Part shown: positions 8,582 to 23,753 of the stretch, piece by piece
Position numbering within the stretch: the stretch's first letter is position 1
Layout of the letters: each line of letters begins with the position of its first letter
DNA from: a virus
Virus record (IMG/VR): IMGVR_UViG_3300007276_000310
Coordinates: 1-23,753 of that record
Direction: 5' to 3' (one strand)
Length of the DNA stretch: 23,753 nt
The notes under the pieces: model-generated
Database searches by the model: none
What the model saw: the letters and a program-made list of their open reading frames with translations, nothing else
What the model was told of the DNA's origin: nothing
Made by a program: the position numbers and the translations under genes

Positions 8582-9283
8582 ATGGCTAATACAAATAGCA
8601 GTTATATTATAGAAAACGTTGAGGCTCTTTGGCCTCGTATCAATAAACCATACCGTTTTGATAACGCAGAAAATCGCACTGTACCGTGTACCGCGTTTGA
8701 CGATGGTGCTAAATACGAGATTAAATTTCGTATGACAAAAGATCAAGCTAAGGCTTTGTATCTTGAAATGTGTAAGGCGTATGAGGAACGCAAAGAAAAA
8801 GGGTGGCCTGAGAAAGTTGATAATCCATTCACCAAAGATGACGATGGTATGTATGTGTACAAAGCCACGTTGAAAGGTGCGTATGGTAAAGAGGCTACAC
8901 TTAAACCTGTACAAGTGGACTCGAATGGGAGTAAACTACCAGAAGATTTCATGTTAACCACAGGCAGTACAGTCAATGTGGCTGTAATCTTTGTGCCCTA
9001 TAACATGCGTGAAGCAGGAATCTCACTACGTTTGAAAGCGGTACAAGTAATTAAATATGTACCTATGGAATCTAGCACGCCATTCGGTAAGGTTGAAGGT
9101 GGCTTTACATTCCAGAAAGATGATAACCCTTTTGAGGTTGTTGAAGCTAAACCTACTACCAATGTTATTGAAGGTGAGTTTGGTGATACACCTGAACCAA
9201 AGAAAGTCAGTAAAAAAGCAACACCTAAACCAAAAAAGACTGACGCTGATCTTGCATCAATCGTAGACGACTGGGACGACTAG
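8582..9283 (+). CDS. ssDNA-binding protein, T7 gp2.5-like
   Basis: This 233-residue protein has the layout of phage SSBs of the gp2.5-like group. It has an OB-fold-like N-terminal region (residues about 8-165) starting ENVEALWPRINKPYRFD and ending with the characteristic GISLRLKAVQVIKYV strand pair. A PFGKVEGGF motif (167-175), a flexible Lys/Pro linker and an acidic, aromatic C-terminal tail (DLASIVDDWDD) follow. In T7, such a tail contacts the DNA polymerase and the primase-helicase, and the same is likely here. A weak AAGG (8569-8572) lies before the ATG, 11 nt after the previous gene. The family call is by fold layout and context, without an alignment. Confidence 0.82.
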   Translation: MANTNSSYIIENVEALWPRINKPYRFDNAENRTVPCTAFDDGAKYEIKFRMTKDQAKALYLEMCKAYEERKEKGWPEKVDNPFTKDDDGMYVYKATLKGAYGKEATLKPVQVDSNGSKLPEDFMLTTGSTVNVAVIFVPYNMREAGISLRLKAVQVIKYVPMESSTPFGKVEGGFTFQKDDNPFEVVEAKPTTNVIEGEFGDTPEPKKVSKKATPKPKKTDADLASIVDDWDD

Positions 9284-9314
9284 TCCCACAAACTTAGCTA
9301 GGTATAACCGAAAA

Positions 9315-9330
9315 GGGGGCAACTGCCCCC
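9315..9330 (+). terminator. GC-rich hairpin in gap after SSB gene
   Basis: GGGGGC, loop AACT and GCCCCC make a perfect 6-bp GC stem in the 81-nt gap between the SSB and primase-helicase genes. The following bases (CTGCTATCTCC) contain no T-run, so it is not a standard intrinsic terminator. It may pause or partially terminate transcription, or stabilise the upstream mRNA to give more SSB than primase. Confidence 0.45.
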
Positions 9331-9364
9331 CTGCTATCTCCACCCTCGGAATTAGGAATGTATT

Positions 9365-12169
9365 ATGGATGCAGAAGTATTTTTGCGGCACGTCACAGGG
9401 GAAGACGGGTACTACTGTTTATTTGCTGTTAAGCTAGGACAAAATGACAGGCCACAAACGTTTCATACAGACTATGATTCGTTACTACAAGAAGCACGTA
9501 AGCTAGATGCTCGTGGGTATAGCCCATACTTTGCACTGGCTACGTTTGAAGAAAGTGGTACTCGTGTAGCTGACAACGTAAAACAGTTAAAGTCTTTCTT
9601 TATGGACATCGACTGCGGGGAAGGCAGAGATTATCCAACGAAGAAAGAGGGATTACAAGCCCTACAAAGATTTTGTAAGAAGGTTGAACTACCAAGACCT
9701 TTGTTAGTTGATTCAGGTAGAGGGGTACATTGTTACTGGCCTTTGTCTGAACCTGTTAGCAAAGAAACGTGGAAGCCTGTAGCCGAGCACCTTAAACAGC
9801 TATGTAAAAATCATGGGTTTATTGTTGACCCATCAGTAACTGCCGATGCGGCTCGTGTACTGCGTATACCTACTACGCACAATCATAAGACTGAACCACC
9901 AACAGAAGTAACATTCTTTAGTGAGCATGTACCAGAGTATGTGACGCTAGATGAGTTTGCTAAGTGCATTGGTGCGGATAAGGTAGAAACAAAGTCACTT
10001 GAGCCTATGCCTAACAGCGCAGTTATGGATGCGTTGATGGGAAACAAACAATTCAAATTTAAAGATATTATTGCTAGAGAATCTAGCTGTGCGCAGTTAG
10101 TTAACATAGTAGTAAATCAGGATGAGTGTAGTGAGCCTATGTGGCGAGCAGGGCTGTCTATAGCTAAGTTCTGTTCTGATGGGCAGAAAGCCGCACACGT
10201 TATGTCTAAGAATCACCCTGAGTATTCAGCAGAAGAAACACAGGATAAGTTTGACAAAATTAAAGGGCCTTATCAATGTGCACACTTTGATGAGTTCAAG
10301 CCTGATGTATGTACCAAGTGTCCGCACTGGGGCAAGATCAAGTCACCTATATCGTTAGGTGGTAGCATAAAAGAAGCTACCGAAGAAGATAATATAGTAG
10401 AAGTACCTGCACTTGATCTACCAAACACACCTACTACTACGTATGTAATTCCTACATACCCAAAGCCATATATACGTGGCGCTAGTGGTGGTGTATATAT
10501 ACGTACCACAGATGAAGAAGGTGATCCTACTGAGGAACTTATATACCACAACGACATTTACATCGTCAGTCGTATTGTAGATGTCGAACTAGGGGAAGTT
10601 GTGGTAATACGTTTACACCTACCACAGGACGGTGTACGTGAATTTACAGTTCCACTTACAGCAGTAACTTCAAGAGAAGAATTTAGAAAACAGATGTCCA
10701 TGCAAGGCGTGGCAATAACAAAGATGGATAAACTTATGACTTATATGACTACTTGGATTAACGAGTTGCAAGCTACTACAAAAGCTGACTTGGCTCGTAC
10801 CCAGTTTGGTTGGACTGATGATACACACAGTGCATTCATTTTAGGCAATCAAGAAATATCAAGAAATGGTGTAAAGAGTAACCCACCATCTAAAGCTACA
10901 GCAGGTTTGATGAGTGCGTTCAAACCAAAAGGTACGCTAGAGCAGTGGAAAGAAATGGCTAACTTCTATAACCGTGATGGCTTTGAGTTACACCAATATA
11001 TAGTAGCTAGTGCTTTCGGTTCACCACTTATGGCGTTAATGCCCATCGCATGTTCGAGCTTACACGTTCATAGTAAGGAGTCTGGACTAGGTAAGACCAC
11101 TGCTATGTACGTAGGAGCGTCTGTTTGGGGCAATCCAAAGACCTTAGTAGTCGAAGCAAAAGATACGCAGAATTCATTGATGTTACGTGGTGAGGTATAC
11201 AAGAACTTACCTTATTACATTGATGAGTTAACAAACGCCAAGGGTGAAGAACTATCTGACTTAATATATCAACTATCTAGTGGTAGGCAACGTAACAGGA
11301 TGGCAGGTAGCGCGAACACAGAGAGACATCGGGGTGAGCCGTGGAGTTTACTATCTATATCTACAGGTAACACTAGTGTCATTGAACGAATAAGTGCTTT
11401 CAAGAATGCTCCGAAGGCCGAAGCGGCTCGTATGCTAGAAACAAAAGCTGTTAAGTTATTTGATGAGACAAAGACTAAGCACCTGACTGATGCACACCAG
11501 TCTAACTCTCAAAACATATATGGGGTTGTAGGCGTACCCTATCTGCAATATCTAATGCAGAACATGGATAGAGTTATAAACCTATTACAAGAAGTACAGC
11601 AGAAGTTAGATGCAGGTGCGCAACTAACCGCACAGGAAAGGCATTGGTCAGCAGGTTCTACCGTTACTGTAGCAGGGTTTATGTTGGCTAGTGAACTTGG
11701 GTTCTTAGAGTATGACAAAGAAGGCTTTTTTAGGTACGCCCTACGCTTATTAAAAGAGAATAAGACTATGGCTAGCGATATGATAGCTTCTACGGCTGAC
11801 ACATTGAATGACTTTGTGCACGAGCATTGGGGTAGCATACTAAAAATTAAAAGCACTGATGATATGCGTAAGAATCAGGGCAATGGTATGGACGACCTAG
11901 TTATACCTGAAGCTGATCCTCGTATTCGCTTGGTAGGTCGTTATGAGACTGACGTTAAGAAGTTATACATAATACCTAAAGTATTGAAAGCATGGGCTGC
12001 TAAACAACAGATAAATTACAGTTCATTGATAGACGAATTGAAAGCTAAGTTTAAAGGTAAGTATGAAAAGATAAGGCTTACTAAAGGTACATCAACCAAG
12101 ATGCCACTAACACACGTGTTTTGTGTAGATTGTTCTGAAGTTGATTTAGACGAAGATGCTGAAACTTGA
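9365..12169 (+). CDS. Primase-helicase: AEP-like primase fused to DUF927-like ATPase
   Basis: This is a 934-residue multidomain replication protein. Residues about 1-200 look like an archaeo-eukaryotic primase/PrimPol domain: SFFMDIDCGEG (D81, D83 as metal ligands), DSGRGVHCYWPL (H122) and DPSVTADAARVLRIPTT. A linker region carries C305, H307, C316 and C319 (CAHF ... CTKCPHW), a possible zinc site. Residues about 380-700 resemble the DUF927 P-loop ATPase region, with Walker A ESGLGKTT (K577), Walker B PYYIDELT (D620-E621) and a sensor-like STGN (667-670). The C-terminal part ends in a small winged-helix-like segment and an acidic tail (SEVDLDEDAET). AGGA at 9354-9357 supports the start. It probably unwinds DNA and primes synthesis for the encoded polymerase. 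Confidence 0.88.
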   Translation: MDAEVFLRHVTGEDGYYCLFAVKLGQNDRPQTFHTDYDSLLQEARKLDARGYSPYFALATFEESGTRVADNVKQLKSFFMDIDCGEGRDYPTKKEGLQALQRFCKKVELPRPLLVDSGRGVHCYWPLSEPVSKETWKPVAEHLKQLCKNHGFIVDPSVTADAARVLRIPTTHNHKTEPPTEVTFFSEHVPEYVTLDEFAKCIGADKVETKSLEPMPNSAVMDALMGNKQFKFKDIIARESSCAQLVNIVVNQDECSEPMWRAGLSIAKFCSDGQKAAHVMSKNHPEYSAEETQDKFDKIKGPYQCAHFDEFKPDVCTKCPHWGKIKSPISLGGSIKEATEEDNIVEVPALDLPNTPTTTYVIPTYPKPYIRGASGGVYIRTTDEEGDPTEELIYHNDIYIVSRIVDVELGEVVVIRLHLPQDGVREFTVPLTAVTSREEFRKQMSMQGVAITKMDKLMTYMTTWINELQATTKADLARTQFGWTDDTHSAFILGNQEISRNGVKSNPPSKATAGLMSAFKPKGTLEQWKEMANFYNRDGFELHQYIVASAFGSPLMALMPIACSSLHVHSKESGLGKTTAMYVGASVWGNPKTLVVEAKDTQNSLMLRGEVYKNLPYYIDELTNAKGEELSDLIYQLSSGRQRNRMAGSANTERHRGEPWSLLSISTGNTSVIERISAFKNAPKAEAARMLETKAVKLFDETKTKHLTDAHQSNSQNIYGVVGVPYLQYLMQNMDRVINLLQEVQQKLDAGAQLTAQERHWSAGSTVTVAGFMLASELGFLEYDKEGFFRYALRLLKENKTMASDMIASTADTLNDFVHEHWGSILKIKSTDDMRKNQGNGMDDLVIPEADPRIRLVGRYETDVKKLYIIPKVLKAWAAKQQINYSSLIDELKAKFKGKYEKIRLTKGTSTKMPLTHVFCVDCSEVDLDEDAET

Positions 12170-12371
12170 TGACATAGCACCTGATGGCGTACGCATTATC
12201 GTACGTTGGGATAAGATGGGCGTTGGCGCTTCAGTCTTCGTCCCATGTATCAATGCTCGTAAAGCACGAGAACAAGTTAACGTAATATTTAAAAGAAGAG
12301 GTTGGAAATACAAAGCCCTAACCTCCATAGAGAGTAACAAGTTAGGTGTACGCTTTTGGAGGATCGTGTGA
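12156..12371 (+). CDS. Small basic unknown protein
   Basis: This 71-residue protein overlaps the end of the primase-helicase gene by 14 nt in another frame, with no strong SD, so translation is probably coupled. It reads as a compact alpha/beta domain: two strands (GVRIIVRWDKMGVGASVFVP), a helix (ARKAREQVNVIFKRRGW), then a basic loop and final strand (KLGVRFWRIV). It is rich in Arg and Lys. I recognise no family. It is the last gene of the rightward operon, just before the terminator. Confidence 0.72.
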   Translation: MLKLDDIAPDGVRIIVRWDKMGVGASVFVPCINARKAREQVNVIFKRRGWKYKALTSIESNKLGVRFWRIV

Positions 12372-12425
12372 TATTATAGGAAAAGAAGTAACTTCCTCCC
12401 CTTTGTTGCTTCTGTCACTCCCTTG

Positions 12426-12461
12426 ACTCCCCTTTGTTCCGAGGCATTGGGGAGTTTTTTT
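12426..12461 (+). terminator. Rho-independent terminator of the + strand arm
   Basis: ACTCCCC (12426-12432) pairs with GGGGAGT (12449-12455) across a 16-nt loop and runs straight into TTTTTT (12456-12461). The stem is perfect. It sits 54 nt after the last rightward gene, at the convergence point with the leftward late genes, whose last stop codon overlaps the T-run. Read on the - strand there is no T-run behind the stem, so it acts mainly on + strand transcripts. A second CTCCCCTTTGTT copy at 12396-12407 offers a competing partner for the GGGGAG arm. Confidence 0.85.
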
Positions 12462-15400
12462 ATTTACTGTATTCTTTCCAACTATCCATTAAGGCTTCTC
12501 TATACATAGCAGATACAACAACTCCATTATGTTTAGTAGCCGCAGATCTATGTTGAGCTTTCACCGAAGCCTTAATATTATCACGCGATATAACAAACTT
12601 TTGACCTTTATGCCTTTTGTTAAATTCTTTTATGTCTTCCCACGTATCAGCCATTTCTTGGTAGTCTCTATCTCGTAACGCCTTGTAGTATCTACCAGTA
12701 AGTTTCTTACGCTCTTTTGCTATAGCAGTGGTGACTTTGGTGTCTCTAGCGCTCTTTTCGCTGTTAAATGCCAAGTCAGTTGGCATAAAGCCTAGGAATT
12801 TAGAGAAGATTTCACCACCTTTAATATCATCAAGCATAGGTTCACCTGCCCTAGTTAACACACCCTCATCGTAATATCGGAATGAAGTCAGCACATTTGA
12901 TGCACCCGCAGGAGCAAACGACTCTGTCGCACGAAGGAAGTTACCATCCGCAAAGTCTTTCATACCCCTTTGGAATCTACTTAGAGTGCTAACAAATGGC
13001 CCACCTAAGTAGTAACCAAAGTTAGCTTCTACACTAGGATCTCGCATGTAGCGTCTTGACTGGAATATTAAATCATTTAGTTTAACACGATCAGATATAG
13101 ACATGCCTGTAAGTGTAGATACCGGCCCTTTGTAGAAATCCTCTTTTATAAACTTACGTAACCTTGTATCTGCATCATCTTCGTCATCATCTAAGAATAG
13201 ATCCCAAAGCGTAGATATTATGCCCCACAGGGGAGTACCACCAATACCCGCAAAAAAGGCCGCGCTTAAATGTATACCCGCTAATTGTTGTAGCCCTATT
13301 TTTCTTTCTTGTGGGGTAGAGAATATACGTAATATACCTTTTATACCCGCTTTTATCATAGCTGAGTTCATAAGCACACCATAACTCTTATACATGAGTG
13401 CCAACCTACCAACATCTTGTTTTGCTACGGGCATTGTAGTTTCTAAGGTAGAACCACCGTTGGTTTCTTGTGTTAGGTATATGGCATCCAAAGCGGCTAT
13501 CTTACGTAACTCGTTTACATTTGGAGGTACGTCAATTTCTTTACCCAAACGAGGGCTGTAGTATTTCTTACCTGCCTTAAACTGTTCAGCCATTTGCTGA
13601 CGTATTAAGTTGTAAGAGCCTATAATTACTGTCTGGGTGTTAAAGCGTTCACCTTGTACAAAGAAGTATGCAGACGCTCGCATTAGTTTGTCATACCTAC
13701 TAGTCTTCTCGTCAACACCCAACTCTCGGTTTATGTTTGTGCCAAACAATTTACCTTGTAAATCAGCTTCTTTTATCACTGGTATCAAAGATTCTAGCTG
13801 TTCTATTTCTTCTAACGCGGCCTTTTCGTCCATAGCGTGTTCGCGTATCTTCTTCTTGTGGCTTTCTTTTAGCGTGTAGGTAGCCCCTTCACCTGTACCT
13901 TTTATATCATAAAATTCTTTTATGGACATTCTGGAGCCACCAACCATACGTGCTGATCGCATAAACTCGTCGATAGTCCTTTGTACACCAAACCGTGGCG
14001 CTAGGTACGGCATAACAAATAATGGAACCTGTGTCATGTTTACAATGGCGGATGATAAGTTAAAGCCTAGTGTGTACAAAAACGCTACTTGGTTTGCATG
14101 TTTAATAAAGTATTCTTTACCCTTATCTTTAGCTCCCATCAATGCAAAATTGGCGTGGTCTTGTATGAGCGCATCTCTGACAGCATTAATTTTAGCGTTG
14201 TCTGGTTCCTCTTTGCTTAACTCTGTCGCCCTATCAGTAATATCTCTAACTGCCATACGAATCTCTGCGGCTGATCTTATTTTAGCGGCTTGTAAAGCCA
14301 AAGATTTACCCTTTGTCTGCGCGGCAGTCATCACATTTTGGTCGTAACCAAAGTCTCCCTTACGTGCAATTAGTGAACGCACAAAAGAATTCTCTGGAGT
14401 TGTAGCGGCATACATGCGAATCACTTGGTCTTGTATAGATTCCGAAACGTTCTCTTTCTGTAACATGTCCAATATATCTGATACAAATGTACCACTAGGA
14501 GATTTCTCAAACAAAGGTCTTGTAAGTTCTCCATTAAATTTACTGATAGTGGAGTTATCTACGTCAGGGTCAGCTTCTAGTCTTTCCACCATAGCATCGC
14601 GTTGCGCTACATGTTCGTATGTAAGTAAGGCGTTCTCAACACCAAGTGCTTCACCTGTCTTAGGGTCTCGTCTTGTATAAGTAAACCATATTCTAAACTC
14701 ACCATCGTCCCGCACTAATGGAAAGTAGTTTTTTATTTTAGCTTTGGATAGCAGTTTTCTGTTTATATCCCGTAATAACTTCCTACCTGCCTCGTTACCT
14801 GAATCTTTTATAATTCTATCAGTCTCAACGTCCATAGCTTTTTCAATGTCGTTAAATGTAGAAGCGTAATAACTTTTTTCCCTGTTATATTGTTCTTTCA
14901 TTTTTCGTTGTACGTCAATTGGGAACTCGTTTAGTTCGCGTTGTAACTCATCAAATACTTCTGCTAGATCTACAGTTTCAAGTGTTTTACCTTCGTAGTC
15001 TGAACGCTTGCCGAAAGGGTCTACGTCATAGATGGTAGCACCGTAGTCTGGGCTGTAAACAATACGGTTAAATGCAGCAAATACTTTTGCGCCTACACCT
15101 TCAAAAAACTTTCTTTGTTGTTCTATAAACTTGTCGCTTCTAGCAATAGCGGCATCACTACTCCCGCGCTGTTTGTTTATCTCCCTATGTAGCTTGTGTC
15201 CCAGATCTCCAAAACCTGTTACAGTAGCTATATCTGCCAGTGTGGAAAGGTGTATGAACTTAGCGAAGTTTCTAAGGCCTCCACCTCGGGCTTTCATGTT
15301 CTTCCAAAAGTCTGACATTCCGGGTTGATGTTCTTTTACTTCAAGACGCGCTTCTTCTAATCTATCTGTTGTAGATTTAGCCATCTCTCTTATAGAACCT

Positions 15401-18400
15401 CTATCGGAACGTACATACCTAAAGTTAGGATCTAGGTTAGGTTCTAGTATAGCTTCTGCTAATCTATCTATTTCTTGTAAAGCGCTACCTAATTGTCTAG
15501 GTGGATCTCCACGCAACATACGTAAAATGTTTTTAATGATATTGATAAATTTATCTAGCGCCGTGTATTCTTTACCATCTACTTTAATCTTACCTAATTC
15601 TTTTCTAAACACACGATTGTTAAGCCCTTCAGCTAAAAACTCATGTATGTCTGTCGTGCCGTATGCAGTGCCTAACTTACCTTCAAGGTCATTGAACAGC
15701 TTGTATAGAGCCTTGACAGCAGGAGAGTTAGGATTCTTCTCTATGGCTACTTCACTCAATGCGTGACTAGTTTCGTGCAATACAAAGTGCGTAGTTGTGT
15801 TGAAACCTTCTTTTAAGGTTATGGTATCTGTTCTGTAGTCATAGTATGCAAATGGCACTTCATCAGCGTTTTTATAAGCCTGTGGATACCTTTTAACAGT
15901 TTCTTCACCAGTTACAAATTCTACTTTTGTATCAGCTATCTTGTTAGCAAAGTTTCTTGCGTTAGCTCGTAACTCAGAACTCTCTGCAGTTTTCGCTAGT
16001 TCTAACAATGCTTCTTTTAACTTGTTTGCACGTAGTAACTTATCTACTTTGTCAGATACCATACGTAGTAATACCTTGGCATCTGCTTTGGATATTTTAG
16101 CTTCTCTAACTACCTCACCTTCGTACTGCTTACCTACAGTAGTTATGTCTTCTTTAGTAGCTTCATTTAGCATGTACTTTGAGCCGTAGTCATCAAGCAT
16201 GCGTCGCAATGCGCCATAAGATACCCCAGTGTCCTTCCACTTTTTGGCTATCTGTTGCATCACCTCTACTTTTATTTCGCGCTTGGCCTCTTCTACTTTT
16301 CTTTTATCTACAGCCTCTTGGTCTATCTCAACTCCTTTTTTAGCTGGCTCCGCTTTAGGCTGTGCTTTAGCTTTAGGCTGTGCTTTAGCTTTAGGCTGTG
16401 CTTTAGGTTTAGGTTGTGCTTTAGCTTTAGGCTGTGCTTTAGGTTTAGGTTGTGCTTCAGCTTTAGGTTGTGCTTTCTTCCTAGTTACCTTAGCCTTACG
16501 CGTCTTAACAGCTTTTTTAGCTGTGTCCGCAGTCTCTTTCTTAGCAGCAGCTTTTTCAGATTTTTCTTGCGCCGCTTTAGCATCTGCTTCACGCAACTGT
16601 TGTACCTTAGTACGTAGGGCTTTGTTAGTTTCTTGACTTAAATTCTTTTTAGCCCATGCCAAGACCTTAGCGGCTTTTTTAGGAGTTAGCCCTCTAGTGG
16701 TTATTCCAGCAGTTTTAATTGGGTTATTGTTAGGGCTAGCTACTTGATATGTGGCATGTAACAAAGCGCTCATTGGGCTATCAAATTTCTGCATGTAAAT
16801 AGATACTTCTTTAACATCTGCAGGTATAGCACGTTCTAAGGAGTCATCTTGAATTCTTTTTGTGGTTGGTAGGTCGTATACATTTTTTAATGCTCTACGA
16901 TCTTGATTTAGTTTTCTGTGTTCAGGAACTAGCGTACTGCTAGTAGGGTACTTTACTAGGTCTACTTTTCTACCAGAATCTAGAACACGCTCTTTTGTGG
17001 TGGGTGTATCAATTGACGGAGCTTCAACAGGCTCCATCGTAGCGGGTCTGACTGGTTTTGTTCGGAGGCGTGGAGCCCCTAGTTGTAGTTCCTGTTGACT
17101 ACCTAGTGCAAAGACTGGCTCTCTTTTTCGTCTAGTAGATCTTCTAGTGTTACGCTTACGACCATCCAATCTTCCTTGGAGAGGCTTTCCAGCGCTGGGG
17201 GTACCATCAGCACGTCTCTGTCCCATGAATTCTGAACGACTTTGAATGCGGTCTCTAGTTCTTCTCTCGTCAGGTGTTCTAGCAGTTTGCTTTCCAACAT
17301 TTCCGATTTGCTCCTTTATCTTAGCTTCTAATTTACTAAGATCTGAGTCAGAAGGCAAGAAAGGTTGTCTACTTTCCATCTCTTGTAGTTCGGCAGGGAA
17401 CATATCCATTTGTTCAGTATTGCGGTTTTTCCTAGCAGCTTTTTGCCTATCGTCAAATTGTTTTTGTTTCGCCGCTTCTGTAACACGCTGTGGCTTTTCT
17501 GCACGCTGAGTACGTTGGTATGATTCCAAACTAGCCACTTCAGCCTTGGTTGCTTTTGGGTTTCTGTAGCCGTCTTGTTGCAGGGCTTTTTCAAACTTCT
17601 TAGTTAACGCTCTAGAATTAGTGGTGGTAGAAGAATCTAACACTCGGTTAAGTATCGTTCTTCTATTTATCATAGTGCGCTCTTCTCGAGCCCTATCTCT
17701 AGCCGTATCTATTTTACGTGTAGAGTCTATTTTATCTTGCTCCACCATAGATTCTAGTTCGGCGGTTTCTAGCTCGTCTATCATATCCCGTGTACTAGTA
17801 TCGCGCTCAGTCAACGGTTCTTTTAAATCTTGAACAGGTTTTGGGGGCCCTTGTTTATCACGTTCTTCTTGTTCAGCGACATTTAATTCTTCTGCAAACA
17901 TATCGCCCTGTATATCATCACGCTCTTCTCGGGCTTTTTCTTGTCGCTCATCAAACTTTCTTTGTTCTACACGTTCTTCAGTAGTATCAATACTATCGTC
18001 TGTTACTTTAGCTCTTCTACCTTTTCTACTTAAAACGTCTTTAAGTCCCTGTACTATAGCACCAGAACCAGCGCCATAAGAGCCTTCTTCTAGCACGCCC
18101 ATATTAATAAGTTCTTGTTCGGGGTCGTACCCTGCTTGTACTAAGTTTTGTAGTATAGCGGCAGATGCTTCTTGGCCACCTTCTATTATGCCCGTACCGA
18201 CCATACGTTGTAATCTAGTAACAATCCCGTTAACAGTATCACTGTCTATCCTACTTACCAGTTTGTCCATTACATCAGACAATCCCGGAATTTTTAGCCT
18301 AGTAGCAAGCCTTCCGAGAGGTATCATTTCGGTTAGACCAACACCTACACCTTTCAGGGCGGCTAAATTACGCTCTTCTTCGGTTGCACCTGCGGCTCTA

Positions 18401-18864
18401 GCACGCTCACTAGATTCTCCCGCACCTGCTGCACCTGACACTACACCTGCTATTGGTATGGCTGCAGGGCCCGCAAACGCTGCAGGTACAAGTCCTAATA
18501 TAGAACCAACACCTTGGCCTAAGTTATACGCTATAGAATCTTCGTCTACGTTATCAAAAGAAAGGGCTTCTTGAGTTGCTAGGATCTTTTTGCGTGCGGC
18601 AAGTTCTGCCTCTTCTTCAAGAGGAGCAATAGCGCCTAGCGCGGCTGAACTATATAAACCCACAGCACCCGTGGGTATACCTTTAAAGAAGTTACCAATC
18701 ACACCAGTCTCTTCCTCACGTCCCACTTCTAAAGATGGGTACTTCTTGCGCTGTAGTTCGTTGTAGGCTTTTTCATAGAGCTCGCTTAGTTCTCTAGCTT
18801 CGCTCTCCAACCCTTGCGCCTTGGCGTTGTTATACGCACTTCTTATGTCTTGTAAGGTAGCCAT
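12460..18864 (-). CDS. Giant polyvalent virion protein with zincin metallopeptidase-like domain
   Basis: This 2134-residue protein is the last gene of the leftward operon. The N-terminus is helical, with a Gly/Ala hydrophobic segment (about 112-148). A long charged region (300-780) has repeated DERQ(E/K)KAR-like stretches. A (AQPKxK)7 linker covers 798-839. A zincin-like domain has HETSH (H1030, E1031, H1034) and HEFLAEG (E1079) as a possible third ligand. A long helical region follows with YFPLVRDDGEF and GFNLSSAIVNMTQVPL, and the C-terminal part (about 1850-2050, FGYYLGGPFVSTLSRFQRG) resembles LPD38 of large polyvalent proteins. Such proteins are known or proposed to be packaged and co-injected with phage DNA. 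The peptidase may process virion proteins or act on host targets. The start is 7 nt after the previous stop with a weak AGG. Confidence 0.88.
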   Translation of the reverse strand: MATLQDIRSAYNNAKAQGLESEARELSELYEKAYNELQRKKYPSLEVGREEETGVIGNFFKGIPTGAVGLYSSAALGAIAPLEEEAELAARKKILATQEALSFDNVDEDSIAYNLGQGVGSILGLVPAAFAGPAAIPIAGVVSGAAGAGESSERARAAGATEEERNLAALKGVGVGLTEMIPLGRLATRLKIPGLSDVMDKLVSRIDSDTVNGIVTRLQRMVGTGIIEGGQEASAAILQNLVQAGYDPEQELINMGVLEEGSYGAGSGAIVQGLKDVLSRKGRRAKVTDDSIDTTEERVEQRKFDERQEKAREERDDIQGDMFAEELNVAEQEERDKQGPPKPVQDLKEPLTERDTSTRDMIDELETAELESMVEQDKIDSTRKIDTARDRAREERTMINRRTILNRVLDSSTTTNSRALTKKFEKALQQDGYRNPKATKAEVASLESYQRTQRAEKPQRVTEAAKQKQFDDRQKAARKNRNTEQMDMFPAELQEMESRQPFLPSDSDLSKLEAKIKEQIGNVGKQTARTPDERRTRDRIQSRSEFMGQRRADGTPSAGKPLQGRLDGRKRNTRRSTRRKREPVFALGSQQELQLGAPRLRTKPVRPATMEPVEAPSIDTPTTKERVLDSGRKVDLVKYPTSSTLVPEHRKLNQDRRALKNVYDLPTTKRIQDDSLERAIPADVKEVSIYMQKFDSPMSALLHATYQVASPNNNPIKTAGITTRGLTPKKAAKVLAWAKKNLSQETNKALRTKVQQLREADAKAAQEKSEKAAAKKETADTAKKAVKTRKAKVTRKKAQPKAEAQPKPKAQPKAKAQPKPKAQPKAKAQPKAKAQPKAEPAKKGVEIDQEAVDKRKVEEAKREIKVEVMQQIAKKWKDTGVSYGALRRMLDDYGSKYMLNEATKEDITTVGKQYEGEVVREAKISKADAKVLLRMVSDKVDKLLRANKLKEALLELAKTAESSELRANARNFANKIADTKVEFVTGEETVKRYPQAYKNADEVPFAYYDYRTDTITLKEGFNTTTHFVLHETSHALSEVAIEKNPNSPAVKALYKLFNDLEGKLGTAYGTTDIHEFLAEGLNNRVFRKELGKIKVDGKEYTALDKFINIIKNILRMLRGDPPRQLGSALQEIDRLAEAILEPNLDPNFRYVRSDRGSIREMAKSTTDRLEEARLEVKEHQPGMSDFWKNMKARGGGLRNFAKFIHLSTLADIATVTGFGDLGHKLHREINKQRGSSDAAIARSDKFIEQQRKFFEGVGAKVFAAFNRIVYSPDYGATIYDVDPFGKRSDYEGKTLETVDLAEVFDELQRELNEFPIDVQRKMKEQYNREKSYYASTFNDIEKAMDVETDRIIKDSGNEAGRKLLRDINRKLLSKAKIKNYFPLVRDDGEFRIWFTYTRRDPKTGEALGVENALLTYEHVAQRDAMVERLEADPDVDNSTISKFNGELTRPLFEKSPSGTFVSDILDMLQKENVSESIQDQVIRMYAATTPENSFVRSLIARKGDFGYDQNVMTAAQTKGKSLALQAAKIRSAAEIRMAVRDITDRATELSKEEPDNAKINAVRDALIQDHANFALMGAKDKGKEYFIKHANQVAFLYTLGFNLSSAIVNMTQVPLFVMPYLAPRFGVQRTIDEFMRSARMVGGSRMSIKEFYDIKGTGEGATYTLKESHKKKIREHAMDEKAALEEIEQLESLIPVIKEADLQGKLFGTNINRELGVDEKTSRYDKLMRASAYFFVQGERFNTQTVIIGSYNLIRQQMAEQFKAGKKYYSPRLGKEIDVPPNVNELRKIAALDAIYLTQETNGGSTLETTMPVAKQDVGRLALMYKSYGVLMNSAMIKAGIKGILRIFSTPQERKIGLQQLAGIHLSAAFFAGIGGTPLWGIISTLWDLFLDDDEDDADTRLRKFIKEDFYKGPVSTLTGMSISDRVKLNDLIFQSRRYMRDPSVEANFGYYLGGPFVSTLSRFQRGMKDFADGNFLRATESFAPAGASNVLTSFRYYDEGVLTRAGEPMLDDIKGGEIFSKFLGFMPTDLAFNSEKSARDTKVTTAIAKERKKLTGRYYKALRDRDYQEMADTWEDIKEFNKRHKGQKFVISRDNIKASVKAQHRSAATKHNGVVVSAMYREALMDSWKEYSK
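16348..16473 (-). repeat. Seven tandem 18-bp units coding AQPKxK linker
   Basis: Seven consecutive 18-nt units inside the giant gene encode AQPKAE, AQPKPK, AQPKAK, AQPKPK, AQPKAK, AQPKAK and AQPKAE. The DNA copies are close to identical (GCTTTAGGCTGTGCTTTA pattern on the + strand), indicating recent slippage or unequal crossing-over. The peptide resembles the Lys/Pro/Ala spacers of TonB or histone H1 tails: extended, rigid and positively charged. Confidence 0.9.
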
Positions 18865-18871
18865 TTGTTAC

Positions 18872-20728
18872 CTACTTTAAACTTTCTACTAGGTCTTCAC
18901 CTTTTTCACCAAGATCTATATCGCCGTCTAAAATGTCAGGCTCAGTTTTCGGGTTCGTAGAACTCAGATCACTTTCCTCAAAATTAACATTGTAAAGTTT
19001 ACCTATCTCGGCCATTACCAATTTACGTGTAGGCTCAGCAACTGTGCCTGAAATTAAATTAGCTAGCGCTATTATCATGTCGTATCTTTCTCGATCGTCT
19101 AGTTTACTCAGGTCTAGATTATCAATTTCCACCTGTCTACTTTCCAAGAATTTTTGCTTCTCTTTTGCTCGTTCAGCGTCAATTTTTTCCAACATTCCAA
19201 GCAAATAGTTTTTGGTGTCTATGTTCTTCATTTCTAGACGGAAATTTTGCTGTTCACTTATACCTGCAGCTTTAAGTGCCGCGCTAATACGCTCAGCGTT
19301 TTGCTCCATGTACATTTGCGTTTGTCCAAGCAACAGTTCTGCGTTTTGTGCGCCTATGTTTGCAAGTGATTGTAGTGCAGCTACTTTAGTGTTTTGGCTA
19401 AGTTCAACTGCTTTAGCAACCTGATTATCGGCTTTCTCCAACGCAGCTACCTTAGTATCAAATCGTTGTTTATATTGGTCTATCTTGTTTTGTTTAAACT
19501 CTAAAGTTTTTTCATTCTGAGTTCTTGACGCATTTGCAATACGTCTACCTAGCCCACTACCTGCACGCATATCTTGTAGCATCTGTGCACGTTGTACTTC
19601 AGGAGACATCTGACGGTCTTGCTCTTTAGCTAAGTCATCTTGTAAACCTTTTAAACCCATTTCTCCTGTTTTGGGGTCTTGGCCTTTATCTAAATCAGCT
19701 ATGCCGTAGCGCTCATCAAACCTTTTCTGCGCTACGTCTTGTATACCACCCTCACCAAATACATCCTTCTTAGCCATATCTCCAAGGGTACCCATAGTAT
19801 CCTCACCGACAGCATCACTAGCCATATTAGACTTTATAGCAGTTTGTTGTTCTGGGGTTATCGCGGTATCCATCCCCGCAATTTTTTCAAGCACCGCAGT
19901 AGTGTCGGTCATTTGAGGCCCGCCTTGATTGCTACTCATAGCAGACAAAACTTTTTCGTACATAGGATCTTTTTTATATTCCTGACCTCTAGCTATTTCA
20001 GCAGATGTTACCACTGGCCCCGGGGTTGTGCTAGAGGTGTCCTGCAAAGAGTTAGGGTCTACATCTAGACTTTTTAACTCTTTTTGAAGTCTTTCTATTT
20101 CTTTCTGAACTTGTATTTTTTCGCTAATTATGTCACGAGTGGGTTGCTGAGGGAATTTTGCAAGTTTTTCCCGCTCCTGCTTTAACCTCTGCATTAGACT
20201 ATCTTTGAGTACCGCTTTCTTTGCTGGATCTGTTGACCCACCTTCAGAAAAACCAACAATACCCCCGCTAGCCATCATAGGAGGACGACCACCAGCCATA
20301 GCGGGTAAGCCACCCATAGGAGGTTTGGGAGCGCCACCCATAGGAGGACGACCACCAGCCATTGGCATAGGAGGTTTAGGAGCGCCACCCATAGGAGGAC
20401 GAGCACCTGCAATACCACCTTGTTGCGGCGGGCGTTGAGGTTGACCTTTTTGCGCGGCGCGTTGCGCCATTATACCCGCAGTCTGATTGGTCATTTCATT
20501 CTGCGTCATACCCATGACTTTTTGTTCTAGCTGGTCTTTAATAGTGTTAGGATTTTGCTGTTGCGCCATTTGCAGTTCTTTGAGCGCCGTGTCTTTTTCA
20601 CGAGCTATTTTTTGAGTAGCCATAACGTCAAGTAGATCTTTAGATACAGTGCTAGTTTTACCTCGCATCTGCATACTATCTGCTTTATCGTTAACCTGTT
20701 GGTCAATGTTTCCCATTATGCCTAACAT
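18872..20728 (-). CDS. Pro/Gly-repeat and coiled-coil virion-type protein
   Basis: The start ATG overlaps the upstream stop (TAATG on the - strand) and is preceded by GGAG at an 8-nt spacer. The 618-residue product has a helical N-terminus (1-90), a Pro/Gly repeat region (98-152) built from GGRPPMGGAPKPPM units, the motif ASGGIVGFSEGG (153-164), and then long Gln/Lys/Glu-rich helices likely to form coiled coils (about 175-230 and 400-560). The C-terminus is acidic (DGDIDLGEKGEDL). No signal peptide, enzyme motif or membrane segment is seen. Its place between another GGIVGFSEGG protein and the giant polyvalent protein suggests an internal virion or ejection component, comparable in position to T7 gp14-16. 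That is inference. Confidence 0.82.
   Translation of the reverse strand: MLGIMGNIDQQVNDKADSMQMRGKTSTVSKDLLDVMATQKIAREKDTALKELQMAQQQNPNTIKDQLEQKVMGMTQNEMTNQTAGIMAQRAAQKGQPQRPPQQGGIAGARPPMGGAPKPPMPMAGGRPPMGGAPKPPMGGLPAMAGGRPPMMASGGIVGFSEGGSTDPAKKAVLKDSLMQRLKQEREKLAKFPQQPTRDIISEKIQVQKEIERLQKELKSLDVDPNSLQDTSSTTPGPVVTSAEIARGQEYKKDPMYEKVLSAMSSNQGGPQMTDTTAVLEKIAGMDTAITPEQQTAIKSNMASDAVGEDTMGTLGDMAKKDVFGEGGIQDVAQKRFDERYGIADLDKGQDPKTGEMGLKGLQDDLAKEQDRQMSPEVQRAQMLQDMRAGSGLGRRIANASRTQNEKTLEFKQNKIDQYKQRFDTKVAALEKADNQVAKAVELSQNTKVAALQSLANIGAQNAELLLGQTQMYMEQNAERISAALKAAGISEQQNFRLEMKNIDTKNYLLGMLEKIDAERAKEKQKFLESRQVEIDNLDLSKLDDRERYDMIIALANLISGTVAEPTRKLVMAEIGKLYNVNFEESDLSSTNPKTEPDILDGDIDLGEKGEDLVESLK
20237..20260 (-). 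repeat. 24-bp repeat coding GIVGFSEGG, copy in the 618-residue gene
   Basis: CCCACCTTCAGAAAAACCAA then CAAT on the + strand is identical to 21565-21588 in the neighbouring gene. It encodes the core of ASGGIVGFSEGG; the flanking codons diverge. Confidence 0.85.
20277..20405 (-). repeat. In-gene DNA repeats coding GGRPPMGGAPKPPM
   Basis: A 36-nt sequence starting ATAGGAGGTTTGGGAGCGCC at 20316 recurs at 20367 with one mismatch (51-nt period). ATAGGAGGACGACCACCAGCCAT occurs at 20277 and 20340. Together they code the Pro/Gly-rich linker of the 618-residue protein. High DNA identity points to recent duplication; copy number may vary between strains. Confidence 0.8.
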
Positions 20729-22656
20729 TATGTAGTCTCCGTATTTATATTAGTGGGATCTTGTTGGTACCCGAAAAGTTTTAGTAAGTATTCCATGCCA
20801 GCCTGTCCTTGCTGAAGCTCTCCTAACGCGCTGGGCTCTGTGTAGCTAGTAGTCCTAGCCGAAACTGGTAGCCCCTGTAGCAATGACTGCATGTACTGCA
20901 CCATCTTAGCGTCGTAATCACGTTCTTCTCTAAACTGTCCGTAGTCCGCAGCTATACCTTCAGAAGCTATATCACGTTGTGTTTGACCTGCATTCATTTG
21001 TGCTGCTAGGGTATCAAAACCATACTGATTAATGTTTTGTTGGTTTTGTTGCGCTCTATCCATAGCTTGAGTGAAGCCTTGCGCTCGCTGTGTCGCTGCC
21101 ATGTCACCGATACTTCTAGTTAGGTTGTTAGCAGCTTCGGCACGCAGTAGTGCGTCTCTTGAACCACCGAAAGCGCCCGCACTAGTTAACGCTTGTCTAT
21201 TTTGTAGCTGAGTAATCTGGTCTTGTCTGCGCATATCAGCAGCGGTGCGATCAATAACATTCTGCTCATAAGGGTTCATAAACCTAGTTGCATCATTAGG
21301 GTCAAATGCACCCATTTGTTTGGTTACAGAACTACTACTTAGTGGGTTGTTTAGAGCCATAACACCGGTCATAGCCTGATCTTGCAAAGTGCTAGTTCCC
21401 GCAGTTAGCGGGCCAGTGTATGCTTCATACGGACTTTCAGCTTCTGCCCTACCATAAGATAGCATGTCAGTTACATAATCACCTGCCCAGTTTGCAAGTG
21501 CTCCCGACTGCCCTACCTCCTGACCTACTGGAGTTTCTTCTTGAGCATCGTATGTGCCTGTTGGCCCACCTTCAGAAAAACCAACAATGCCACCGCCAGC
21601 CATTTTAGGCATAAACTTTTGCGGATCTATTTGTTTACCTTGTTCTGGATTACCTGTGCGTGCTGTACGAACATTATCCATCATATTATGTAGCTGTTGT
21701 GCACCTGCATCAGAGTTACCATTACCTAGGTGACTTACTACATCTGCAGGTACTACAAACTCACCATCGCTCAAACGTGCTTCTTGCTTACCATCAATAC
21801 GTGCAGGTACTTTGTCAGCCATGCCATCAGTCTTACCACCTAAGTAGTAACCATTATTAAACAACTGACCACTTTGCATAGAGGCTAGACCCCCACCAGC
21901 ATACTTGCGTACACTACCACCCATAGCCATACCACTGGTATCATCTGCAGCAGGAGCAGGGTTCATAATTGATTCGATTTCTTCTGGACTCTTACCTTCC
22001 ATCTCTAGCTTTTGTCTCTGAGATTTTTTCTCTGCGTCAGCTACGGACATGGGAGTAAACTTTTCTTCTTCAGGTTTAGCGTATATGGTGTCTGTAAAGT
22101 AACGTCTGCCTTTACCTCCGGGCCTACGTTCATACCCGCGCTTATAGCGATCTCCCCCAAAACGCTGTGAGTTTAGTTCAGCATCACTCATTTCTTCTAA
22201 ACTGTCCGGGTCGCTAAAATCGCCCTTCATCATTTTCTTGTCGCCAGTAAGATCTTGAGTAGTTAATATGCCTGATCTACTTCCTTCTGTGCGATAGTCC
22301 TTATCTTGATCTACACGTTTTCTTACTTTCTGAAGCCTATCAATACCACCCTGATACCCTACTTCAGGGCGGTTTGGCTGTGTGTATTTGCTTATCATAG
22401 ACGCAGCGCCTATGTTTAGTAGCTGCCCTACAGGATCATTGGGATCACCCATTCGTTCTAGTATGCCATCGCCAAGATCTAGAACCGAGCCACCAATACT
22501 AGTTAACAGGTCGCCTATAGTGCCTGTAAGACTATTGTTTTGCCCCGTACTACCTTGAGTTAGCGAGTTGTCTTGATTACCATGCACAGCTGCAGCACTA
22601 GAACCGCCGCCCGTGGACTCTTGGACTACTCCTGTACCACCTAAATACGTTGACAT
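20728..22656 (-). CDS. Gly-rich virion-type protein with GEFVVPADVV region
   Basis: The start overlaps the upstream stop (TAATG on the - strand), with GGAG at a 7-nt spacer. The 642 residues include a Ser/Gly-rich N-terminus, a charged region (100-230), a glycine-rich block (243-300: AMGGSVRKYAGGGLAS, then GYYLGGKTDGMADKVPARID and LSDGEFVVPADVV), the motif AGGGIVGFSEGG (353-364), and a C-terminal helical region (about 410-600) with FMNPYEQNVIDRTAADMRRQ, LTSAGAFGGSRDALLRAEAA and SLLQGLPVS. The DGMADKVPA/DGEFVVPADVV and SAGAFGGSR segments recur in phage virion proteins of unknown detailed role. It is probably an internal or tail-associated structural protein. No catalytic site is visible. Confidence 0.82.
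   Translation of the reverse strand: MSTYLGGTGVVQESTGGGSSAAAVHGNQDNSLTQGSTGQNNSLTGTIGDLLTSIGGSVLDLGDGILERMGDPNDPVGQLLNIGAASMISKYTQPNRPEVGYQGGIDRLQKVRKRVDQDKDYRTEGSRSGILTTQDLTGDKKMMKGDFSDPDSLEEMSDAELNSQRFGGDRYKRGYERRPGGKGRRYFTDTIYAKPEEEKFTPMSVADAEKKSQRQKLEMEGKSPEEIESIMNPAPAADDTSGMAMGGSVRKYAGGGLASMQSGQLFNNGYYLGGKTDGMADKVPARIDGKQEARLSDGEFVVPADVVSHLGNGNSDAGAQQLHNMMDNVRTARTGNPEQGKQIDPQKFMPKMAGGGIVGFSEGGPTGTYDAQEETPVGQEVGQSGALANWAGDYVTDMLSYGRAEAESPYEAYTGPLTAGTSTLQDQAMTGVMALNNPLSSSSVTKQMGAFDPNDATRFMNPYEQNVIDRTAADMRRQDQITQLQNRQALTSAGAFGGSRDALLRAEAANNLTRSIGDMAATQRAQGFTQAMDRAQQNQQNINQYGFDTLAAQMNAGQTQRDIASEGIAADYGQFREERDYDAKMVQYMQSLLQGLPVSARTTSYTEPSALGELQQGQAGMEYLLKLFGYQQDPTNINTETT
21565..21588 (-). repeat. 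24-bp repeat coding GIVGFSEGG, copy in the 642-residue gene
   Basis: This is identical over 24 nt to 20237-20260 and encodes the core of AGGGIVGFSEGG. The identity at synonymous sites suggests a recent copy or strong constraint. Confidence 0.85.
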
Positions 22657-23753
22657 TACTTATCTCCAATAATTTTAAGTATTTCGTCAGTCTTATCTTT
22701 AATCATACCACCTTTCGCACGCCTTTGTTGTGGCAGTATTATATCATTTAAAAAGTTATCTCCATACATAGAAGCACTTTCATAAAACCCTTTTTGCTGG
22801 TCAGTAGCGAACACATTATCGCCAGCGAAATCATATATGTAATCTATGTTGGTTAGCGGTGCTTGTTGTTCCGTAACCTTACGCTCTTGTTGCATGGCTC
22901 TAACCAACTCTTCACGCTGTCTTTCTTCTGTTTGCGCGGTTAACATGTTTTGGAATTCAGTTTGCATGTTTAGCTGCGCTTCTAAATTTTGTTGGCGTTG
23001 CTGCTCTAATTGCTGTTCAAACTCCAATTCAGCTTGTTCTTGTTCTGCAAATAACCCCGTGGCAGGAGTAAACTGAGAATCCGCAATGGTAGAATAATCT
23101 CCAGTATCTACCACATCCTGCATAAATCTTATGTCTTCACTGTCAAATGTACCATCATTATTAACATCATACAACGCATTATATTCATCCGTCGCAGCTT
23201 CTAAATACGATTCTGCTAGATTAACTTCTTCTTGTGTTAATTCGTTAGCAGGTTTTCCTATTAAGTTGGCTAATACTTGTATCTCTCCGCTAACCGATTC
23301 TATGTCTCCTCGAGTAGCCAAATCCTGCAATTGCCCTTGAATATTTTTAATATCCGTCTGAGCTGTAGTAATAGCGTCCTCAGCCGTATCTAGATCCGCC
23401 TGTGTAGCTGTGCCGCTTTCCAGTAATGAACTATAATTATTCTCTGCAGTAGCCAATCTATCAGTAGCTGCAGTCAAATCAGTTTGCAATGTGTCTACTG
23501 TGTCTTGAGCAGCTTTAGTTGCAACATCAGCTTGTAGGGTAGTAATATCTTGTTGGGCAGTACCTAAATCAGTTCTTAGATTAGTAACATCTGTTTGTGC
23601 TTGTGCTACTGCCTCCTCTGCTTTGTCTAGATCCGCCTGTGTAGCAGTACCGCTTTCTAGCAATGAAGCATAATTATTTTCTGCAGTGGTTAATCTAGTT
23701 TCAGCAGCTTCTAAATCAGTCTGCGCAGCTTTAGTTGCAACATCAGCTTGTAG
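22656..23753 (-). CDS. Coiled-coil repeat protein with EF-hand-like loop, truncated by window edge
   Basis: The frame is open to the right edge of the window, so the gene starts beyond it. TTG at 23663 lies inside a repeat and is not a likely start. The visible 365 codons begin with a long heptad coiled coil made of two related units (LQADVATKAAQ ... LESGTATQADLD). A helical segment (LANLIGKPANELTQEEVNLA) and one EF-hand/dockerin-like loop, DVNNDGTFDSED, follow. A Gln/Glu-rich coiled coil (EQAELEFEQQLEQQRQQN...) precedes the C-terminus, which carries a short RAKGGMIKDKTDEIL motif. The stop overlaps the next start by 1 nt. It is probably a fibrous virion or internal structural protein. Calcium binding is inferred from loop positions 1, 3, 5, 7, 9 and 12. 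Confidence 0.85.
   Translation of the reverse strand, partial: LQADVATKAAQTDLEAAETRLTTAENNYASLLESGTATQADLDKAEEAVAQAQTDVTNLRTDLGTAQQDITTLQADVATKAAQDTVDTLQTDLTAATDRLATAENNYSSLLESGTATQADLDTAEDAITTAQTDIKNIQGQLQDLATRGDIESVSGEIQVLANLIGKPANELTQEEVNLAESYLEAATDEYNALYDVNNDGTFDSEDIRFMQDVVDTGDYSTIADSQFTPATGLFAEQEQAELEFEQQLEQQRQQNLEAQLNMQTEFQNMLTAQTEERQREELVRAMQQERKVTEQQAPLTNIDYIYDFAGDNVFATDQQKGFYESASMYGDNFLNDIILPQQRRAKGGMIKDKTDEILKIIGDK
23301..23753 (-). repeat. Two coiled-coil repeat units of 72 and 79 codons
   Basis: A 29-nt sequence at 23509-23537 recurs exactly at 23725-23753 (216 nt apart), marking the start of each unit. The conserved LESGTATQADLD blocks are 79 codons apart because the second unit carries seven extra residues (DTVDTLQ). 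More units may lie beyond the window. Confidence 0.85.

What the first reader, a model, noticed from the sequence alone, without database searches (positions are those of the whole stretch)
20237..21605. Identical GGIVGFSEGG module in two neighbouring virion-type proteins
GGIVGFSEGG occurs in the 618- and 642-residue proteins, with 24 identical nucleotides. Related Gly-Gly-hydrophobic pieces occur in the latter (AMGGSVRKYAGGGLAS) and in the third protein (RAKGGMIKDK). I have the impression that similar AGGGIVAF-type motifs recur in marine phage proteins. A short module repeated across three consecutive genes may be a processing site for a virion protease, an assembly tag or a packaging signal, possibly read by the adjacent peptidase-bearing protein.
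Basis: partly seen in the sequence, partly recalled or inferred. Interest (0 to 1): 0.65.

Follow-up and report, generated by a model that had tools for sequence, protein, structure and literature searches.

The report
Conserved junction motif in phage-injected proteins
A short glycine-glycine motif found in two neighbouring phage genes turns out to be conserved across a very large group of uncultured phages, at the joints of proteins that are probably carried in the virus particle and injected into the host, and it may mark where those proteins are cut or docked during assembly.

Summary
GGIVGFSEGG occurs in both adjacent genes with a 24-nt identical run. In a sample chosen without reference to the motif (by the neighbouring B domain), 70 of 72 downstream genes carry the core [MFY]-A-x-GG-[IV][VI]-[AGS]-[FY] near residue 133 (0.4 expected). 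The gene order M, B, A, giant recurs. B matches a 'DNA ejection protein' family, some A proteins carry peptidoglycan hydrolases just after the motif, and 47 of 47 complete giants carry a zincin HExx(x)H. A GG motif sits at 32 of 33 M-B fusion joints (3.9 expected) but is not enriched at separate B N-termini (3 of 146; 5.4 expected); separate M proteins simply end there. The M module resembles tape-measure C-terminal regions. Best reading: a short linear motif at module boundaries of podovirus-type ejection proteins, most likely a maturation cleavage site (about 0.45), possibly cut by the giant's zincin; a docking motif is the main rival. A DNA packaging signal is not supported. No cleavage has been shown.

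The parts
20237..20266 (-). Motif GGIVGFSEGG, residues 155-164 of P0001 (A protein)
   Evidence: core motif in 70 of 72 A genes of a B-selected sample
21565..21594 (-). Motif GGIVGFSEGG, residues 355-364 of P0002, at the joint between M module and B domain
   Evidence: motif at 32 of 33 M-B fusion joints
21889..21921 (-). Looser motif GGSVRKYAGGG upstream of the M module in P0002
   Evidence: sequence; matches GGx[VILM]xx[YFW]xxGG, which is found in upstream virion genes of related loci
21607..21843 (-). M module of P0002 (residues 272-350), like tape-measure C-terminal regions
20731..21504 (-). B domain of P0002 (about residues 385-642); family of phrog_4287 'DNA ejection protein' by profile relation to loci that match it
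18872..20728 (-). P0001, the A protein (618 aa), carries the first motif copy
20728..22656 (-). P0002, M-B fusion protein (642 aa)
12460..18864 (-). P0004, giant protein (2134 aa), last third like a DarB-type polyvalent protein
15763..15777 (-). Zincin motif HETSH in P0004 (residues 1030-1034), with EFLAE at +45
22692..22721 (-). RAKGGMIKDK near the C-terminus of P0003: a C-terminal tail type also seen in some B proteins, not the same motif

Best explanation
The motif is a conserved short linear motif, core [MFY]-A-x-G-G-[IV]-[VI]-[AGS]-[FY], at module boundaries of a cassette of podovirus-type ejection (internal virion) proteins. In the A protein it separates a roughly 130-residue N-terminal region, ending in a Pro/Met/Gln-rich stretch, from the rest, which in some phages is a peptidoglycan hydrolase. 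In P0002 it separates a tape-measure-like M module from the B ejection domain. Most likely mechanism (inferred): it is a maturation cleavage site. Precursors enter the particle as joined chains and are cut at or next to the Gly-Gly pair, which removes the N-terminal region of A like a propeptide and separates M from B where they are fused. The best candidate enzyme is the zincin metallopeptidase in the giant protein encoded next door, acting in trans. Shown here: conservation, position, gene order, zincin signature. Inferred: cleavage, its timing and the enzyme.
For: Core motif in 70 of 72 A genes of a sample not selected by the motif, median residue 133, 0.4 expected. Motif at 32 of 33 M-B fusion joints (3.9 expected) and 5 of 8 B-A joints (0.6), but not enriched at N-termini of separate B proteins; flexible T/G/S/P-rich stretches follow the motif separately at these joints. 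Specific residues kept inside otherwise variable stretches. Hydrolase matches start 15-26 residues after the motif in three A proteins. Zincin signature in 47 of 47 complete downstream giants, with conserved EF[VAL]AE downstream in many. Precedents: zincins are proposed to process polyvalent proteins (PMC5512222); SPN3US ejection proteins lose propeptides of 125-137 residues at AxE (PMC10052503); T5 and lambda tape measures are cleaved (PMC10038345).
Against: No cleavage data exist here. DSL-LC04 and ct7L0027 have motif-like segments but no HExxH in the neighbouring large protein; MinM2 has HExxH without the strict motif. The P0002 copy is degenerate in a 92%-identical relative. Looser GG motifs also precede the M module in unfused proteins. 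Motif and zincin may co-occur only because the cassette is inherited as a block; relatedness was not corrected.
Confidence: 0.45

Rival explanations
1. Docking or assembly motif: the GG-hydrophobic-aromatic segment is an uncut peptide that binds a partner (portal, another ejection protein or the giant), for instance by strand addition, and so loads or orders the proteins in the head.
For: Strong residue conservation within variable stretches; several looser copies per protein and in neighbouring upstream genes; tandem copies at many joints.
Against: Not enriched at N-termini of separate B proteins, although a docking site belonging to B should persist there; no partner identified.
Confidence: 0.33
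2. Flexible glycine hinge: the motif is only a linker that lets modules move while passing through the portal and tail.
For: Located between modules; predicted coil with the lowest confidence around the motif (a poor model overall).
Against: The I/V, V/I, A/G and F/Y positions and the upstream M/F/Y-A are conserved, which a plain linker does not need; ordinary flexible stretches lie beside it.
Confidence: 0.15
3. DNA-level signal (packaging or recombination) or a recent chance duplication confined to this phage.
For: 24 identical nucleotides, more than codon usage predicts.
Against: Nucleotides differ in close relatives while the protein motif persists in A; the protein motif is found across very diverse viral contigs. 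Exchange between the two genes explains the identity.
Confidence: 0.02
4. Short membrane-active segment that inserts into the envelope on ejection.
For: Hydrophobic and glycine-rich, in proteins that probably cross the envelope.
Against: Only about four hydrophobic residues, commonly followed by Asp or Glu.
Confidence: 0.03

Closest known systems
T7-type ejection (internal virion) protein cassette gp14-gp15-gp16
   Same: Three consecutive genes in the virion module with the largest last; hydrolase domains may sit in gp15-like or gp16-like proteins (PMC8954989).
   Different: No sequence homology to T7 proteins shown; extra M module; GG motif and zincin giant are not described there.
Polyvalent proteins of phages (Iyer et al. 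2017)
   Same: Giant protein with zincin metallopeptidase and a DarB-like C-terminal part, next to virion genes.
   Different: Processing proposed there is mainly of the polyvalent protein itself; here the motif lies in companion proteins and is rare in the giants.
Siphophage tape-measure proteins (lambda gpH, mycobacteriophage TMPs)
   Same: M module resembles their C-terminal GEFV region, preceded by GG; some tape measures are cleaved.
   Different: Here in phages with a podovirus-like gene set; the lambda match is short and needs profile comparison.
SPN3US/phiKZ and T4 prohead-protease processing of head and ejection proteins
   Same: Works like it, if cut: motif-directed removal of N-terminal propeptides of similar length (PMC10052503).
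   Different: Those use a serine prohead protease and AxE-type sites; here a GG motif and a candidate zincin.
Adenovirus maturation protease sites
   Same: Cuts internal virion precursors at (M/I/L)XGG-X sites (PMC4246237).
   Different: A cysteine protease of animal viruses; analogy only, no homology claimed.

Membership tests
Podovirus ejection protein cassette | Recurrent gene order with a gp16-like large last gene in the virion module | tested here: met
   M-B-A-giant order in most loci; portal, head and tail fibre genes in the same module of the 66-kb relative
Podovirus ejection protein cassette | Member proteins present in virions | tested here: inconclusive
   Record notes say the phiM5 B protein and three following proteins were detected in particles; not for this phage
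Podovirus ejection protein cassette | Sequence family match to ejection proteins | tested here: inconclusive
   B relatives match phrog_4287; P0001 and P0002 themselves give no PHROG hit
Tape-measure protein | C-terminal GEFV-type module | tested here: met
   PDB sequence hit only E=0.023
Tape-measure protein | Sets the length of a long tail | not testable with these tools
   Gene set looks podovirus-like; P0002 is not filed as a tape measure
Zincin metallopeptidase (P0004) | HExxH and a downstream Glu ligand | tested here: met
   HETSH at 1030, EFLAE at +45, pattern shared with many giants; no Pfam hit
Maturation protease cleavage site | Demonstrated cut at the motif | not testable with these tools
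   No proteomic data available for these phages
Maturation protease cleavage site | Conserved motif at domain boundaries of virion proteins | tested here: met

The most novel reading that the evidence does not exclude
A Gly-Gly directed maturation system, widespread in uncultured phages, in which a zincin carried in the giant injected protein cuts its companion ejection proteins at [MFY]-A-x-GG-[IV][VI], releasing propeptides, tape-measure-like modules and cell-wall hydrolases.
Probability: 0.28. Interest if true: 0.8.

Novelty: new variant of a known kind. Interest (0 to 1): 0.58.

Why it matters
The motif and its cassette occur in a very large set of uncultured phages; an A-family query found no match in the named phage collection. 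It gives annotators a marker for ejection proteins that Pfam and PHROGs largely miss, links podovirus-type ejection proteins to siphophage tape measures through the M module, and turns an open question, what the peptidases in injected giant proteins cut, into a direct mass-spectrometry test.

Tried and rejected
DNA packaging signal: disfavoured by diverged nucleotides in relatives. Chance: rejected by controls. Third copy in P0003: judged a different C-terminal motif. Pfam and PHROGs on P0001 and P0002: nothing informative. Tblastn of an A-family N-terminal region in named phages: no match. PDB fold search of the M model: no match. Profile search of the B domain against PDB sequences: none. 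Structure of M-motif-B: low confidence, not interpreted beyond disorder. L110 in the motif scan is a holin-like chance hit. Text search for the motif letters in papers: nothing; the library lacks most subscription journals.

Full report
Observation. The window is an IMG/VR virus record. GGIVGFSEGG occurs twice on the minus strand, at 20237-20266 in P0001 and 21565-21594 in P0002, with 24 identical nucleotides. Given the shared residues and the window's codon usage, identity of the seven complete shared codons has P of about 0.002, so the two genes have probably exchanged this stretch. In a 92%-identical relative the P0001 copy is kept while the P0002 copy reads GGIAKFSEGS with different nucleotides, and the P0001 copy there ends in the same GGGCCA as the window's P0002 copy. 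This argues against a DNA signal.

Breadth. Nearly all hits lie in long frames, typically around residue 105-145 of 400-800 aa proteins, and positions not selected for are conserved: A at -2 in 106 of 116, M, Y or F at -3 in most. In other genes of the same loci a looser motif occurred 16 times forward and 0 times reversed. All 16 lay in genes 1-4 upstream of the index gene; still looser patterns gave a few hits elsewhere.

Cassette. Profiles built from the window's proteins show a recurrent order: an M protein two or three genes upstream, a B protein just upstream, the A protein with the motif, and a giant protein downstream. B was found just upstream of, or fused to, the index gene in 105 of 119 loci. 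P0002 is an M-B fusion. B relatives match phrog_4287 'DNA ejection protein', and in Sinorhizobium phage phiM5 the B protein and three following proteins are noted as detected in the particle proteome. Some A proteins carry SLT, glucosaminidase or M15 domains, in three checked cases with the matched stretch starting 15-26 residues after the motif. The 66-kb relative that is identical to the window in P0001 and P0002 has portal, major head and tail fibre genes in the same module. By order and content this resembles the T7-type ejection cassette (PMC8954989); homology to T7 proteins was not shown.

Sample not selected by the motif. Eighty loci were fetched with the B-domain alignment. Of 72 downstream genes of at least 250 aa, 70 carry GG[IVL][VIAL][AGS][FYL], with 0.4 expected from shuffles and median position 133. 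Of 47 complete downstream giants, 47 carry HExx(x)H, 0.76 expected. In many the surroundings show HExxHA and a downstream EF[VAL]AE at about +44; P0004 has HETSH at 1030 and EFLAE at +45, as expected for zincins of polyvalent proteins (PMC5512222). Relatedness among these loci was not corrected, the sample holds the best-matching loci only, and the profiles came from motif-selected loci.

Joints. Among M-B fusions 32 of 33 joints carry a GG-hydrophobic-aromatic motif against 3.9 expected; B-A fusions 5 of 8 against 0.6. Separate M proteins end mostly within 0-2 residues of the module, so they cannot carry it, and N-termini of separate B proteins are not enriched (3 of 146, 5.4 expected). The motif therefore goes with the joining of modules. 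Looser copies also precede M in unfused proteins.

The M module. It matches annotated tape-measure proteins, the lambda gpH segment 751-777 by profile comparison (score 32.6 against at most 15.5 in 40 shuffles) and, weakly, a solved tape-measure chain (E=0.023). Tape measures of lambda and T5 are reported to be cleaved during tail assembly, in T5 between a hydrophobic stretch and the muralytic domain (PMC10038345). Whether the lambda cut lies near the GG preceding its module was not tested here.

Mechanism. I prefer a maturation cleavage site (0.45) because specific residues are kept at joints inside variable stretches, because the position of the motif in A resembles the 125-137 residue propeptides of SPN3US ejection proteins (PMC10052503), and because a peptidase signature is encoded next door. 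The docking motif is close behind (0.33). Against an obligate enzyme-substrate pair: DSL-LC04 and ct7L0027 have motif-like segments without HExxH, and MinM2 the reverse; phiM5, vB_OspP_OH, CV-1-33 and GB2A lack both. The pattern could reflect ancestry. Structure prediction gave low confidence around the motif and no fold match for M.

Novelty. No paper in the held library contains the motif letters, but that library is partial. I rate it a new variant of a known kind: motif-marked module boundaries in ejection proteins.

Noticed in passing
22656-23753 (P0003); relative G001 9561-25469: The window's third protein is the C-terminal end of a 5302-aa protein with long repeated coiled-coil-like segments, lying between the tail fibre gene and P0002.
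   Followed up: partly
G001 63997-65302 (L158): Three small Lys/Gly-rich proteins between the head and tail genes carry GG pieces such as GGKVKKYKSGG, close to the looser motif.
   Followed up: no
L009, L033, L107 and others, C-termini of B proteins: Some separate B proteins end in KGGxIKEK followed by a short helix-like tail, resembling the end of P0003 (10 of 191 against 0.4 expected).
   Followed up: partly
L017, L069, L102, L105 and others, N-termini of M proteins: Many M proteins begin with a conserved GRGxDxMLVHMTPxEV...NPxTGLPEA segment of unknown function.
   Followed up: no
L247 (ct7L0027) 8920-12477; phiM5 B protein in L248: In ct7L0027 the B domain is followed by a Peptidase_S74 (chaperone of endosialidase) domain, a GG motif and an SLT domain; the phiM5 B protein is annotated as chaperone of endosialidase. 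S74 domains are known self-cleaving chaperones.
   Followed up: partly
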